From the NCBI GenBank assembly GCA_030651695.1, contig JAUSCD010000015.1, positions 1-64,000 of the forward strand: 64,000 bases of DNA. The letters run 5' to 3'. Under the pieces are notes generated by a model. The model had not been told where the DNA came from. It made no database searches and saw only the letters and a program-made list of their open reading frames with translations. Numbering within the stretch: position 1 is the first letter of the stretch; every line of letters begins with the position of its first letter. Source of the DNA: Pseudohongiella sp. Lineage in GTDB: Bacteria; Pseudomonadota; Gammaproteobacteria; Pseudomonadales; Pseudohongiellaceae. Made by a program: the position numbers and the translations under genes. Positions 1-49,400 of the stretch are shown here, piece after piece.

Positions 1-96
1 GGATACCATCCAGTTTGTTAAGAAGGAAAGCGTCAGTCGCTCATCTCGCGCCCAGCATCAAAGTGCTCAGGACTGTTACAGCTATACTGACGCTTC

Positions 97-125
97 GCTA
101 CATTGGTTAGCTACACCAGTGTAGC
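97..125. repeat. Intergenic stem-loop (GCTACATTGG / CCAGTGTAGC) next to a second hairpin, GGACT-gtttg-AGTCC, at 141-155
   Basis: Inverted repeats read directly from the sequence. Confidence 0.5.
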
Positions 126-250
126 AAAGGAGAGATATAAGGACTGTTTGAGTCCTGAGCGGCGCAGCCGCGAAGTCGAGTTCCGCAACGCCGGTCGGAT
201 GACCAGAGGATGCGGCCGGTCCGGTGCGGCGACCCGCTCCCGTTGCGGCT

Positions 251-321
251 GCACCTGAAGTTGCGGTTGCACCTGAAGTTGCGGCTGCACCTGAAGTTGC
301 GATTGCACTGAAGTTGCGGTT
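251..321. repeat. 18-bp tandem repeat, about 4 units (GCACCTGAAGTTGCGGYT); last unit is 17 bp
   Basis: Units 251-268, 269-286, 287-304, 305-321 aligned by eye; the last lacks one C. Confidence 0.9.
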
Positions 322-335
322 GTTATCCCGATTGA

Positions 336-1127
336 TCAAAGAAAACAAGGCCCGTAAGGCAACACAGGCAACCCGAACCGCTCAGGATACTCCACACCAA
401 CCAGATACAGACCATCCGGCCGCGCCGTCACTCCAGCCAGATTCCGGTCCCGCCCGGCAAGCACCTCAGCCACCCACTGCACCGGTCGCCGCCCCATCGC
501 CACCTGCAAAAGGCTGCCCACAATATTCCGCACCATATGCTGCAAAAACGCATTTGCCTCAATTTCCAGCACAATAAACTGACGCTGCCTGCGCACCTCA
601 ACAAAACGCACCTCACGCATCGGCGTATTGGCCTGGCAACCCGCTGCCCGAAACGCACTGAAATCGTGTTCACCTACCAGAGACTGAGCCGCTGTATGCA
701 TCAACTCCACATCCAGCAACTCCGGCACATGCGTCAACTGCCCGATCAACACTGCGGGTTTGACCTTGCCACAATAGATTACATAGCGATAACGACGACT
801 TAAAGCTGAATGGCGGGCATGAAAATCGTGTGGGACCTCACGCGCCCATTGCACACGCACTTCCGGCGGCAGACGCGTATTGGTGCCCATAACCCAGGCT
901 TTTTCATTTCGGATGGCTGGACTGTCAAAGTGCACTACCTGACCGCTGCCATGCACACCGGCATCGGTTCGCCCGGCACAGCTGATTGCCACAGGCGCAT
1001 CAGCAATAAATGCCAGTGCATCCTCCAGAATGCCTTGCACTGTGGGGAGGGCCGGCGACAACTGTCGCTGCCAACCGGAAAAGGAGGCGCCGTTGTATTC
1101 AACGCCCAGGGCATATCGAGTCATCAC
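336..1127 (-). CDS. truA: tRNA pseudouridine(38-40) synthase TruA
   Basis: MTRYALGVEYNGASFSGWQRQ and CAGRTDAGVHGSGQVVHFD motifs; adjacent to fimV. Confidence 0.95.
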   Translation of the reverse strand: MMTRYALGVEYNGASFSGWQRQLSPALPTVQGILEDALAFIADAPVAISCAGRTDAGVHGSGQVVHFDSPAIRNEKAWVMGTNTRLPPEVRVQWAREVPHDFHARHSALSRRYRYVIYCGKVKPAVLIGQLTHVPELLDVELMHTAAQSLVGEHDFSAFRAAGCQANTPMREVRFVEVRRQRQFIVLEIEANAFLQHMVRNIVGSLLQVAMGRRPVQWVAEVLAGRDRNLAGVTARPDGLYLVGVEYPERFGLPVLPYGPCFL

Positions 1128-38731: not shown

Positions 38732-38761
38732 GGGGTCGGAGGACGCATGTCCTCTGACCCC
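38732..38761. repeat. REP-like hairpin GGGGTCGGAGGAC-gcat-GTCCTCTGACCCC
   Basis: 13-bp arms with one mismatch (G/T wobble), 12 bp after the acnB stop. Confidence 0.75.
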
Positions 38762-38780: not shown

Positions 38781-38866
38781 GGGCCGGTAGCGGAGAGTAG
38801 TTTGTCGGACGACGCCTTTGGCGCCTGATTGTCCGAAAACTACTCTCCGCTACCGGCCCTTTTTCT
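38781..38866 (+). terminator. Very long terminator-like stem-loop downstream of acnB; apex carries the shared 24-nt motif (copy 1, inverted)
   Basis: GGGCCGGTAGCGGAGAGTAGTTT..AAACTACTCTCCGCTACCGGCCC then TTTTTCTTT; apex ACGACGCCTTTGGCGCCTGATTGT (38809-38832). Confidence 0.85.
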
Positions 38867-38953
38867 TTGTTGGGTCAAGAGACACCAATTCGTTTGCAGA
38901 GGCAGGAGATGTCTAACTATTTTGGCCGCATGAGCCGGCACAGTCAGTGGATA

Positions 38954-39033
38954 AGGGGTGATGCCGGGTGCCGGTTGATGAACAATCAGGCGCCGCAGGC
39001 GTCGTTCAGCGTCCGGCACCCGGCAGCGCCCCT
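38954..39033 (+). repeat. Stem-loop with shared 24-nt apex motif (copy 2)
   Basis: Stem AGGGGTGATGCCGGGTGCCGG / CCGGCACCCGGCAGCGCCCCT; apex ACAATCAGGCGCCGCAGGCGTCGT (38982-39005). Confidence 0.85.
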
Positions 39034-39055: not shown

Positions 39056-39085
39056 AATTCCAAGTGCCCCTAATTCCAAGTGCCC
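39056..39085. repeat. 14-bp direct repeat AATTCCAAGTGCCC (two copies)
   Basis: 39056-39069 and 39072-39085. Confidence 0.85.
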
Positions 39086-40882
39086 TCAGCGCTGCACTGA
39101 GAAAAAAGCCCTGAGCCGACCAAGCTCTTCAGAAGTCCAGCCGACAGGCTCCGTCAACGCCACCCACGAATCCAGGTAGTGCTCAGCCGCATAAGCATGT
39201 CCATACCCCCGCGGCGACACACCGCTGGCCATATCCGCTGCCAGCTGCAACATTGTCACCACCGGAAACCAACGCAGATCCGGTGTCACGTCAGGGCCAC
39301 GTGCGCCCTGCATCCAGTCTGGTTCACGATACAGGACCTGAGGCGCAAAAAAAGTGATGGGGTCACTGGCGTACTGCAAAAACGCAATCCGGAAAGCGCC
39401 CCAGTCACTACCAGGCAAATCCAGGCCACCGGATTGGTTGGCAAAGCGCACCACCGCACCATGTCTGAATTTTGGCAACCAGGCTGGAGAGCCGGGGTCA
39501 CGCAGCAGTGTTACAGAGCGCCACGTCTCACTTCTGAACGGAGGGCCGCTCCACAATGCGCCGTGAAACGGGTCTTCAATGATGTCATAAAAATCAAAGG
39601 ACAAATCGGAATTAAGCGCACCCAGACTTAGTCCCAGCAAATAAAAATCAGGGCGATCGTCTGCGGGCAATTCTGACCAGTAACCATAAATGGTCTGGAA
39701 CATCGCGCGAGCTGTTTCTACGCCGTAGTCCGCTTCAGATAAAATAGCCAGCGGACTGGACAGATAGGAATACTGAGCAGCAACACTGGCAGTATTGCCA
39801 CCATACAGGTACTCAAGCGGACCAATGCTGCCAGGGTCTACCCAGCCGGTGCCGGTGGGTGTTATCAGTACCAGCACTGCACGGCTGAAAGCACCAACCC
39901 GAAGCAACTCCGCCAACGCCAGATCCGCACGTTCCTGCGCAGTTTCAGCGGAGTTCAGCCCTACATAAACCCGCAGTGGGTCCATTGTCTGAGCGATTGA
40001 TTGCAAGGGGGCGTATTCCGCAATCTGCTGACGGGTTGGTGCAAGGCTGACAAAACGACGCCCTTGCCGGCCCAACTGCTCCCACGATATAAGGGACGTG
40101 GCGCTGCCGGTTTTATTGGTTTCCAACGGTGGTTCAAACTCTGGTTCAATCAACGCGTCGATGCGCTGATAAGAGCGATCCGCCGCCTGTAATGCCAACG
40201 AAAACAGCACACCATCAATAATCGACCAGAACAGGATCAGTGCGGACAACAAACCAGCCAGATGTGAGACCCGGGTGGGGACAAAGTGTTGCATTTTTTT
40301 TGATAAAAACAAAAACGTGCGATAAAAAAGGCGGAAGAGCCATAGCAACGTTAAAAAAAGTGTCACCGCAATCACTGCAATCATGCTCATCTGGATGCCG
40401 GTGATTGCTTCCATTCCCATCAGGTCGCGCACATTGTTCTGCCAGCCACTGGCCTGCCACAAGAACACTATGACAACAAAAACAAATAATACGGTCACCA
40501 CCAACTGAATGAGTCGCCGGACACGATGCTGTGCTACTGGCAGTCCGAAATAGTCCCAGACCAGATAAAGAAGGACACCCGCCCCATAACCTGCACTTAA
40601 AGACAGCCCTGAAATCAGTCCCTGCACATAATCCGGGCGAGGCAATAATGATGGTGTTAACGAGACTGCAAAAAAAAGTGTACCAAGCAGAAGTCCGATT
40701 GAATGAAAATGCCGGCTGACGCGGCGTAATAGCAGCCGCCAGGCCAGACTGACTCGACGGCTGTGGACTACACTGCCTCTGGCACTATGATTGATACTGC
40801 GGTTGAGCACGCGATATTTCCTGAGCAAAGTCATGGTATGTATCGCAGTCTCTGACATGCTCCCCGCCGCTGTCAACCGCAC
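39086..40882 (-). CDS. Membrane-anchored alpha/beta-hydrolase family protein
   Basis: N-terminal TM segments (LLLGTLFFAVSLTPSLLPR...), C-terminal YLLGLSLGALNSD nucleophile-elbow-like motif and WSGPPFRSETWRSVT. Confidence 0.75.
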   Translation of the reverse strand: MRLTAAGSMSETAIHTMTLLRKYRVLNRSINHSARGSVVHSRRVSLAWRLLLRRVSRHFHSIGLLLGTLFFAVSLTPSLLPRPDYVQGLISGLSLSAGYGAGVLLYLVWDYFGLPVAQHRVRRLIQLVVTVLFVFVVIVFLWQASGWQNNVRDLMGMEAITGIQMSMIAVIAVTLFLTLLWLFRLFYRTFLFLSKKMQHFVPTRVSHLAGLLSALILFWSIIDGVLFSLALQAADRSYQRIDALIEPEFEPPLETNKTGSATSLISWEQLGRQGRRFVSLAPTRQQIAEYAPLQSIAQTMDPLRVYVGLNSAETAQERADLALAELLRVGAFSRAVLVLITPTGTGWVDPGSIGPLEYLYGGNTASVAAQYSYLSSPLAILSEADYGVETARAMFQTIYGYWSELPADDRPDFYLLGLSLGALNSDLSFDFYDIIEDPFHGALWSGPPFRSETWRSVTLLRDPGSPAWLPKFRHGAVVRFANQSGGLDLPGSDWGAFRIAFLQYASDPITFFAPQVLYREPDWMQGARGPDVTPDLRWFPVVTMLQLAADMASGVSPRGYGHAYAAEHYLDSWVALTEPVGWTSEELGRLRAFFSVQR

Positions 40883-47114: not shown

Positions 47115-47945
47115 TCAAGCGCGACTGATTTCAAGCTCATAACCGCTGAAGCGGCGAATATTGATAACTCCGGTATCAAACATCAGATACTGACCTTTGA
47201 TGCCCAGAAGGGTGCCTTCCACCAGCGCGTCGTTATCCAGATTAAACGAAGTAATTTTGTCCGGATACCCCTGCACCGGATACTGGATCTCAACCGGCTC
47301 TATACCCGTCAGTACGCTGACAGCATGAAAACCAAAACGCTGGACCATGTCTTTGAGATCAGTTTCGCAGATGTTCAGCAGATGATCCCGCTCGGCTTTC
47401 AGATCCACAACCTGATCCCCCTCTCTCAGCATATCGCGCCAGTTGGTTTTATCCGCAACATGCTGACGGAACATCACTTCAAGCGAACCACTCTGCAAAC
47501 GCGTGCGCACACGCACAATCGGAAGCGCCTGCACTGCGCCCTGATCCACCCAGCGCGTGGGGACCTGCGTTGCCCGCGTAATGCCAACCTTCACGCCTGA
47601 CGAATTAGCCAGATAAATGATGTGATCCTGCATACAAAACTCTTCACCCCAGGCCGGCTCGCGGCAGGTGCCCAGATCAAAGTGGCACTTCTCGGGATGG
47701 ATAATACAACTGTCGCACTGCGCCAGCTTCTGAAAACACGGATAACAATAACCCTGATTAAAACTCTTGTTGCTGAGCCGGCCACAATGCACACAGTTTA
47801 TCTTGCCGGTATAACGCAACCTGACCGTGCTGCCGAGCAGATCGTTCATCGGCGTCAGCGTATCGCCCAGCGGCAACTGATAACGTACCGGTGACTCCAG
47901 CCGTGAATGAAGCTTGCGAACCGTGCCTTGTGCCAATACCTGCAT
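47115..47945 (-). CDS. DUF2797 family protein (Cys-rich plus GIY-YIG-like segment)
   Basis: CVHCGRLSNKSFNQGYCYPCFQKLAQCDSCIIHPEKCHF; IIYLANSSGVKVGITRATQVPTRWVDQGA. Confidence 0.8.
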   Translation of the reverse strand: MQVLAQGTVRKLHSRLESPVRYQLPLGDTLTPMNDLLGSTVRLRYTGKINCVHCGRLSNKSFNQGYCYPCFQKLAQCDSCIIHPEKCHFDLGTCREPAWGEEFCMQDHIIYLANSSGVKVGITRATQVPTRWVDQGAVQALPIVRVRTRLQSGSLEVMFRQHVADKTNWRDMLREGDQVVDLKAERDHLLNICETDLKDMVQRFGFHAVSVLTGIEPVEIQYPVQGYPDKITSFNLDNDALVEGTLLGIKGQYLMFDTGVINIRRFSGYELEISRA

Positions 47946-48062
47946 GCGAAAACTCTCTACGGGGATTTAAAAATCATTTGCGTCGTTAATTTTTCGTTCA
48001 TTTGAACCGGCACGACCCCGGCGAGTAAGCCGAGGCGGCACGATCCCCACAAGCAAGCCGAT

Positions 48063-48125
48063 GTGGGGGACTAGCTTTTTTGACAATCAGACGCCGCAGG
48101 CGTCGTCAAAAAAACAGTCCCCCGC
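48063..48125 (+). repeat. Stem-loop with shared 24-nt apex motif (copy 3)
   Basis: GTGGGGGACT..AGTCCCCCGC and TTTTTTGAC..GTCAAAAAA stems; apex ACAATCAGACGCCGCAGGCGTCGT (48083-48106). Confidence 0.85.
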
Positions 48126-48205
48126 AGCGGCGCAGCCAGGCGCTGACCGCTACCCGCCCCTTTCCGAAAATACAAAAATAACTTCCATCACATAAGGCTG
48201 ATTTT

Positions 48206-48499
48206 TCAGTGCGTAATAATCTTCAGCGGCTCAACCCGCTCATGATCATGGCTGTGATTGTCATCATCACACTGCGTTTTTTTCAACCCCGTGCGATCTA
48301 TATAACCTACCCGCATATCCTCAGGCAGATGCTGCTGCTCATACGCGATAATCGCCTGCAGACAATACTCGATCTGCTCCGGCGTCAACTTGCGGCCATC
48401 CTGCCAGCGCCCGAGCTCAACGGCAGTCTTCAGATTCATATGCACTTCAGGATTCATCATCCCAAGAATGTCTTGCATGGATTCTATAGGTTTGTCAGA
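48206..48499 (-). CDS. YeaC-like DUF1315 protein
   Basis: MMNPEVHMNLKTAVELGRWQDGRKLTPEQIEYCLQAIIAYE; start M at 48499 inferred. Confidence 0.8.
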   Translation of the reverse strand, partial: SDKPIESMQDILGMMNPEVHMNLKTAVELGRWQDGRKLTPEQIEYCLQAIIAYEQQHLPEDMRVGYIDRTGLKKTQCDDDNHSHDHERVEPLKIITH

Positions 48500-49400
48500 C
48501 ATCGGCTCCACTCCTGTTACCAGCTCTCTTAAACACGGTTCCCAGCACCAACCCACTCAGCATGCCAGCAACCAGGCCACCCAGATGCGCGGCACTTGCA
48601 ATCATGGACGACGCAAGAATCTCCATCAAAACCAGTGCCACCAGAAATACCATAATCATGGGCAGGGGCAAACGCAACCGCGATTGCGGACGCAGTGTTT
48701 GCCACATCCAGATGAGACCAATCTGACCATATACTACGCCAGACATACCCCCGAAGTTGGGTGTACCTGACCACAAATATTGAGAAATATTGGCGCTGAA
48801 TGCGAGTAGTAAAATCAGTAACAGATAAATCGGTTTGCCAAACTGCGGCTCCATCATGCGGCCAAAAAACCACAGCCAGAGCAAATTAAAAATCAGGTGC
48901 ACAGGACCAAAATGCAGCAACGCAGGTGTTAACGTCCTGATCCAGTCACCCGGCGAATCCAGACCACTGATCAAAGCTGCCAGCGGAAATTGTCCAGGCT
49001 GTATAACGTCCGGAAAAAACAAGCTGCGCACTGACATGACATCGGCACCCAGATCACTGATAACAGCAACCAGCACGCAGGCCAATATCAGTATCACGGT
49101 GACAGGGGCCAGCCACAGCGCACCCAGAAAACCTTGCAATAGCGATTTTACCGGCAGCATCGGTACAGCAGGGCCGCCCTCTCGAGCGCCACCATATTCG
49201 TTGTTTTCCGGTAACGCCAGAGTGCCGTCCTGCCAGCGCTGCCAGGCGGACGCTATCACAACCACCTGTTCCTGATCCGGCGCCCAGATCACCAAAGTCC
49301 CGGATTCTTCTGTGACATGGTGAGGCAGGTGATATGACCGCAAAACTTTAATGAACGGTCTCAGGTCATGAGTTGCAGAAACAGAAACGGCTCTATGCAT
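48495..49400 (-). CDS. Rhomboid family intramembrane serine protease
   Basis: HFGPVHLIFNLLWLWFFGRMME; GGMSGVVYGQIGLIWM; SAAHLGGLVAGMLSG. Confidence 0.88.
   Translation of the reverse strand: MHRAVSVSATHDLRPFIKVLRSYHLPHHVTEESGTLVIWAPDQEQVVVIASAWQRWQDGTLALPENNEYGGAREGGPAVPMLPVKSLLQGFLGALWLAPVTVILILACVLVAVISDLGADVMSVRSLFFPDVIQPGQFPLAALISGLDSPGDWIRTLTPALLHFGPVHLIFNLLWLWFFGRMMEPQFGKPIYLLLILLLAFSANISQYLWSGTPNFGGMSGVVYGQIGLIWMWQTLRPQSRLRLPLPMIMVFLVALVLMEILASSMIASAAHLGGLVAGMLSGLVLGTVFKRAGNRSGADV

What the first reader, a model, noticed from the sequence alone, without database searches (positions are those of the whole stretch)
38781..39033. Intergenic hairpin family: conserved 24-nt apex on unrelated, covarying stems (copies 1 and 2 of 3)
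Seen: downstream of acnB there are two long stem-loops in opposite orientation. Their tips share ACAATCAG(G)CGCC(NNA)GGCGTCGT (38809-38832 on the minus strand; 38982-39005 on the plus strand), and a third copy lies at 48083-48106. The flanks differ in sequence but stay complementary: GGAC..GTCC, GAAC..GTTC and TGAC..GTCA for copies 1-3. The outer stems are unrelated (GGGCCGGTAGCGGAGAGTAGTTT, TGCCGGGTGCCGG, GTGGGGGACT). A one-sided AATCA bulge sits at the same place each time. Inference: this is a structured RNA/DNA module, either a REP/REPIN-like element or a domain grafted onto stems, with one copy built into the acnB terminator.
Basis: partly seen in the sequence, partly recalled or inferred. 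Interest (0 to 1): 0.68.

Follow-up and report, generated by a model that had tools for sequence, protein, structure and literature searches.

The report
Strand-selected hairpins with locus-specific stems
The three hairpins belong to a larger, apparently undescribed family of repeated foldable elements at the ends of genes in Pseudohongiella bacteria: each copy has a conserved tip on its own private long stem, and base-pair statistics show that one particular strand is kept foldable by selection.

Summary
Observation confirmed. The 24-nt apex occurs 3 times in the window (0 expected), and a covariance model of it finds about 16-38 copies per genome in most Pseudohongiella of the window's clade. 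Outer stems are long (mean about 32 folded pairs), locus-specific, and change in step on both sides even among orthologues of the acnB copy. The sites are gained and lost: copies 1, 2 and 3 are each missing at the syntenic site in at least one relative. Copies sit at gene 3' ends (1 of 84 between divergent genes); close neighbours are head-to-head (21 against 0). The tip is one of at least three modules joined at the same AATCA bulge: the small tip, a 75-nt three-hairpin block, and a larger module with a covarying 67-nt core also found in other Gammaproteobacteria. Imperfect stem pairs are G.T rather than A.C on the AATCAG strand (71 v 20, p=7e-8; repeated in three further sets). So the folded AATCAG strand, not the neighbouring gene's mRNA, is what selection sees. 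Best reading: a REP-like, non-autonomous folded single-strand DNA element family whose enzyme is unknown. An RNA role is the main rival. It fails the GTAG/CGTC-REP tag and stem tests, and the local RAYT has its own unrelated repeats.

The parts
38781..38859 (-). Copy 1: whole hairpin, 23-bp perfect outer stem plus conserved apex, just 3' of acnB; AATCAG strand is antisense to acnB
   Evidence: orthologous in G002, G004, G006, G011 with compensatory stem changes; absent in G001
38809..38832 (-). Copy 1 apex: ACAATCAGGCGCCAAAGGCGTCGT (AATCA bulge plus 6-bp hairpin)
38954..39033 (+). Copy 2: whole hairpin, head-to-head partner of copy 1 between convergent acnB and the alpha/beta-hydrolase gene 39086-40882
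   Evidence: orthologous in G001, absent in G002
38982..39005 (+). Copy 2 apex: ACAATCAGGCGCCGCAGGCGTCGT
48058..48130 (+). Copy 3: whole hairpin between DUF2797 gene (47115-47945 -) and rhomboid gene (48495-49400 -)
   Evidence: the 286-bp G000 interval is 47 bp in G001 and 68 bp in G002
48083..48106 (+). Copy 3 apex: ACAATCAGACGCCGCAGGCGTCGT
129..195 (+). Core of one copy of the larger sister module (GGACTGTTTGAGTCC...GTCGAGTTCCGC), downstream of truA (336-1127 -)

Best explanation
The hairpins are copies of a REP-like, non-autonomous interspersed DNA element whose working form is one folded single strand, the one that reads AATCAG. SHOWN: the apex is the conserved part. A 5-nt AATCA bulge separates an outer stem from an inner hairpin, in small copies mostly with tandem G.A pairs about 5 bp below. 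The outer stem is constrained in structure but not in sequence. Other modules join at the same bulge. Copies are gained and lost at individual sites, sit at gene 3' ends and often form head-to-head pairs. INFERRED: an unidentified enzyme that acts on folded single-stranded DNA (as TnpA-REP, IS200/IS605 transposases or integron integrases do) recognises the apex and occasionally copies or moves the unit. The stem is kept because a stable hairpin is needed. Insertions survive mainly at gene 3' ends, where copy 1 may also have been recruited as a transcript end.
For: Copy number and dispersal. Presence/absence at syntenic sites. Wobble asymmetry favouring the AATCAG strand: 71 G.T v 20 A.C, per-copy sign test 35 v 12, large modules 47 v 11 and 24 v 8, other families 12 v 1. 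It holds whether the AATCAG strand is sense or antisense to neighbouring genes: ++ 20 v 4, -- 16 v 5, so mRNA-level selection is an unlikely cause. Orthologous tips in two close species differ by a clean 75-nt three-hairpin block at the bulge, at two loci in opposite directions. Head-to-head pairs 21 v 0, with bulges as little as 96 nt apart, leaving little room for two promoters. Strand-specific recognition of one REP strand, with bulge dependence, is published for TnpA-REP (PMC8266576).
Against: No transposase could be tied to the family. RAYT presence correlates only weakly with small-tip presence (Fisher p=0.09) and its flanks carry other repeats. No replication-strand bias in the one single-contig genome (15 v 16), although IS608-like elements prefer the lagging strand. 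Multi-hairpin junctions and tandem G.A motifs are also typical of RNA. Flank divergence (about 75-85% identity) prevented seeing exact empty sites for whole elements; only the bulge block has a clean filled/empty pair.
Confidence: 0.48

Rival explanations
1. RNA elements at transcript ends: the hairpins act in 3' UTRs as transcription barriers, terminators or mRNA stabilisers between convergent genes. In a head-to-head pair each mRNA ends in the hairpin it reads in the AATCAG sense.
For: Gene 3'-end location, convergent genes over-represented; copy 1 followed by TTTTTCTTT on acnB's strand and conserved in orthologues; G-U tolerance and covariation are what RNA structure gives.
Against: In tandem genes the AATCAG strand is sense to the mRNA about as often as antisense (20 v 21), and the wobble bias is the same in both. 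Nearest 3' ends are more often antisense (48 v 19). T-runs are rare; the terminator scan finds none at copies 1-3.
Confidence: 0.27
2. A family of independent structured small RNAs, each with its own promoter, with multi-way-junction full-length forms and cut-down forms.
For: Five-way-junction forms, covarying 67-nt core, strand-specific selection independent of neighbours, a weakly recurring TGGCACAAG box just 5' of the left arm.
Against: No promoter-like site fits copies 1-3 on the needed strand; head-to-head pairs leave only tens of bases for two promoters; no Rfam relative.
Confidence: 0.15
3. Stems are perfected by quasi-palindrome (template-switch) repair, so that covariation needs no selection and the elements are inert repeats.
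For: Near-perfect, locus-specific stems; arms re-copied in tandem duplications.
Against: Such repair is blind to which strand is read, so it should not give 71 G.T v 20 A.C, seen again in three further sets.
Confidence: 0.05
4. Ordinary intrinsic terminators whose loops resemble each other by chance or local duplication.
For: Long GC-rich hairpins after stop codons.
Against: 0 expected tip matches, dozens of copies genome-wide and genus-wide, few T-runs.
Confidence: 0.02

Closest known systems
GTAG- and CGTC-tagged REPs / BIMEs (Di Nocera 2013, PMC3733652)
   Same: Interspersed palindromes, predominantly head-to-head dimers, between convergent or unidirectional genes, downstream of coding regions; one strand recognised.
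   Different: REP stems are 5-13 bp with family-conserved sequence and an unpaired GTAG or CGTC tag at one end; here stems average about 32 folded pairs, are locus-specific, and the conserved part is an apical bulge module.
REPINs with RAYT transposases (TnpA-REP; PMC3116915, PMC8266576)
   Same: Paired inverted units; strand-specific folded DNA with a bulge; Y1 transposase genes exist in these genomes.
   Different: The candidate RAYT (about 240 aa) is flanked by GGGGACGGAG/CTCCGTCCCC-type repeats, not by this family; the other Y1 protein (about 335 aa) is single-copy and present even in the element-free genome G013.
Stem-loop sequence families such as ERIC (PMC2267715)
   Same: Long stem-loop repeats in intergenic DNA.
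   Different: Members of such a family are detected by overall sequence similarity; here similarity is confined to the apex.
Integron attC sites (from general knowledge)
   Same: Folded single strand with extrahelical bases and a variable segment.
   Different: attC conserves the base of the stem and varies the tip; here it is the reverse.

Membership tests
GTAG/CGTC-tagged REP | Unpaired GTAG or CGTC tag at one end of the palindrome | tested here: not met
   Conserved unpaired segment is an internal AATCA bulge; the CGTC in the apex is base-paired
GTAG/CGTC-tagged REP | Stem 5-13 bp, sequence shared by the family | tested here: not met
   Mean about 32 pairs by folding; arms unrelated between loci; definition from PMC3733652
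GTAG/CGTC-tagged REP | Head-to-head dimers at gene 3' ends | tested here: met
   -+ 21 v +- 0 within 600 nt; 1 of 84 between divergent genes
RAYT-mobilised REPIN | Cognate RAYT gene flanked by the same repeat | tested here: not met
   RAYT loci have no R1 match and carry a different repeat
RAYT-mobilised REPIN | RAYT presence tracks repeat presence across genomes | tested here: inconclusive
   Fisher p=0.09 over 15 genomes, confounded by phylogeny and draft assemblies
Intrinsic terminator | U-run directly after the hairpin on the transcribed strand | tested here: not met
   Copy 1 only (TTTTTCTTT); most copies lack it
Known Rfam RNA family | Covariance-model match above gathering score | tested here: not met
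   Window at gathering threshold, small and large loci at E-value threshold: only chance matches below gathering at the elements
Integron attC site | R/L core boxes at the stem base with an IntI integrase | not tested
   Considered only from architecture

The most novel reading that the evidence does not exclude
A previously undescribed class of mobile, strand-specific folded-DNA elements in Gammaproteobacteria, built as a locus-private long stem plus exchangeable apical modules joined at an AATCA bulge, with its own unknown single-strand recombinase and a role of the stem that does not depend on its sequence.
Probability: 0.25. Interest if true: 0.8.

Novelty: new variant of a known kind. Interest (0 to 1): 0.6.

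Why it matters
Repeat finders rely on sequence similarity, so a family whose members share only about 24-40 nt on a private stem is easily overlooked. If it is mobile DNA, it points to an unknown enzyme that works on folded single strands. If it is RNA, it is a new structured RNA class with dozens of copies per genome. The wobble test (G.T against A.C by strand) is a simple way to ask which strand of any palindromic repeat is under selection, and here it gives a clear answer for a repeat type whose function has long been argued over.

Tried and rejected
Rfam at gathering and E-value thresholds: only microRNA-type chance matches to long hairpins. Generic pentamer-bulge scan: too strict, most copies missed. 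RAYT as partner: rejected by flanks; the 335-aa Y1 protein rejected because it is a single-copy gene in a conserved place and present in the element-free genome. Cargo genes between paired large modules checked as possible transposase: an NAD(P)H dehydrogenase-like gene, a DUF-type gene and others (named by eye from the translations), no recombinase. Plasmid and phage collections: no match; one viral contig. Exact core pattern across the phylum: only Gammaproteobacteria, 3 of 399 genomes. Literature searches by sequence and by description found no description of this family. Replication-strand bias: none. Most non-Pseudohongiella hits of the genome scan judged chance by fold and flank.

Full report
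WHAT IS THERE. The hairpins span 38781-38859 (-), 38954-39033 (+) and 48058-48130 (+) and fold with z-scores of about -8 to -12. Each has an outer stem, a one-sided AATCA bulge and an inner 6-bp hairpin.

HOW MANY. A 4th exact apex lies elsewhere in the genome. Exact or near matches are confined to the genus among 37 genomes searched. A covariance model of the 40-nt apex (R1) finds 32 copies in the window's genome, 38 in G001, 31 each in G002 and G011, 9 in G003, 5 in G014, 2 in G007 and none in G008, G010, G012 and G013. In a sample of 146 genomes of the order only the two small-tip Pseudohongiella included have matches. The few convincing hits elsewhere (L177, L206) are other uncharacterised gammaproteobacterial bins.

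ANATOMY. Across 25 distinct apices, 99.6% of pair cells are standard pairs and 6 of 11 pairs change on both sides. Subfamilies differ just below the bulge: AGTTGAGGAAC..GTTCCGAAACT, GTGAGCGARNNAC..GTNNYGAGGAAC, GTCGAGGAAC..GTTCCGAGAC, and a T-rich form. Several place tandem G.A opposite G.A. Beyond that each copy has its own arms, often 20-45 bp and nearly perfect. In five orthologues of the acnB copy five outer-stem pairs have changed on both sides.

A MODULAR TIP. Downstream of acnB, more distant Pseudohongiella carry a larger module on another long stem: [stem]-(C)C-AATCA-GGCCGC-[second variable stem]-core. It is in 14 of 15 genomes of the genus, with 25 copies in the window's genome, one at window 129-195. 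Its 67-nt core covaries strongly: 9 of 17 pairs with double changes, covariation score 0.33 against 0.11 in shuffles. G026, from another family of the order, has the complete design with an unrelated outer stem. Other gammaproteobacterial families have the core on locus-specific stems. A third tip has three more hairpins between AC and AATCA, making a five-way junction. In two close species (mostly about 95% identical here, by eye from the alignment) one orthologous hairpin differs only by this 75-nt block at the bulge, in G002 and not G005. At another locus G005 has it and G002 does not. The bulge is therefore a joint at which modules are gained or lost.

WHICH STRAND. In the arms outside the conserved module, counted with a strand-symmetric alignment, mismatches are G.T 71 times and A.C 20 times on the AATCAG strand (p=7e-8; per copy 35 v 12, p=0.001). 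A.C here would be G.T on the other strand, so selection sees the AATCAG strand. Large modules repeat it (47 v 11, p=2e-6; inner stem 24 v 8, p=0.007), and so do copies in other families (12 v 1, p=0.003, where one of the eight copies is again from the window's genome). The copies include some orthologues and are not fully independent, but four sets agree. Strand-blind repair of quasi-palindromes does not explain it.

WHERE. With genes called by codon usage (my own caller), 42 of 84 copies lie between convergent genes, 41 between tandem genes and 1 between divergent genes. The AATCAG strand is sense to tandem genes 20 times and antisense 21 times; the wobble bias is present in both groups. Selection on the neighbour's mRNA is therefore not a good cause. 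Close neighbours are head-to-head 21 times and never tail-to-tail.

GAIN AND LOSS. Copy 3's interval is 286 bp in the window's genome and 47 bp in G001; G001 lacks copy 1 and G002 lacks copy 2. Orthologous flanks are about 75-85% identical, too diverged to define whole-element ends.

MECHANISM. I favour a REP-like, non-autonomous DNA element acting as a folded single strand (0.48). Shown: strand-specific structural selection, modular apex, gain and loss, location, pairing. Inferred: an enzyme on ssDNA. An RNA role (3' UTR 0.27, independent small RNA 0.15) is not excluded, since no expression data were available. Against the DNA reading: no cognate enzyme found and no replication-strand bias.

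KNOWN FAMILIES. REPs and REPINs share layout and strand-specific recognition (PMC3733652, PMC8266576), but the tag and stem tests fail, and the local RAYT has other repeats. No Rfam family, plasmid or phage relative, and no paper describing it was found. I therefore call it a new variant of interspersed bacterial palindromes, possibly a new class.

Noticed in passing
window 38732-38761: GGGGTCGGAGGACGCATGTCCTCTGACCCC right after acnB is a copy of the repeat type that flanks the genus's RAYT genes, next to hairpin copy 1.
   Followed up: partly
L113 (G000:C26:577-3155), L114, L117, L118: A RAYT-type Y1 transposase of about 240 aa, flanked by GGGGACGGAG/GGGGTCGGAG palindromes; present in roughly the genomes that have the small tips.
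   Followed up: partly
L130 (G001:C1:1276619-1279948), L121: A single-copy 335-aa Y1-domain protein in a conserved context (next to what look like cmoB and rpmG/rpmB), present in all 15 Pseudohongiella genomes; looks domesticated.
   Followed up: partly
L027:1400-1575 (G002:C93): A hairpin copy whose left half comes from another copy, so its arms no longer pair: natural recombination between copies inside the tip.
   Followed up: partly
L313 (G000:C1:1-1600), L315 (G001:C12), window 1-600: An NAD(P)H-dehydrogenase-like gene lies between truA and trpF, flanked by large modules in head-to-head orientation in two species; L312/L317 show another flanked gene.
   Followed up: no
L331, L334, L341, L336, L337: In other Gammaproteobacteria the core hairpin is followed by a second palindrome of the CTTTTGGTTACTTTT..AAAAGTAACTCGCC type.
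   Followed up: no
L105 (G001:C1:623500-624300), L092, L028: Tandem duplications of apex plus right arm (66-80 bp units), as if the unit had been re-copied from one end.
   Followed up: no
L314 (G000:C23:143000-145573): About 100 bp of extra perfect inverted repeat around a large module at a contig end; probably an assembly fold-back.
   Followed up: no
window 39056-39085: Direct repeat AATTCCAAGTGCCC twice, 16 bp apart, just 3' of copy 2.
   Followed up: no
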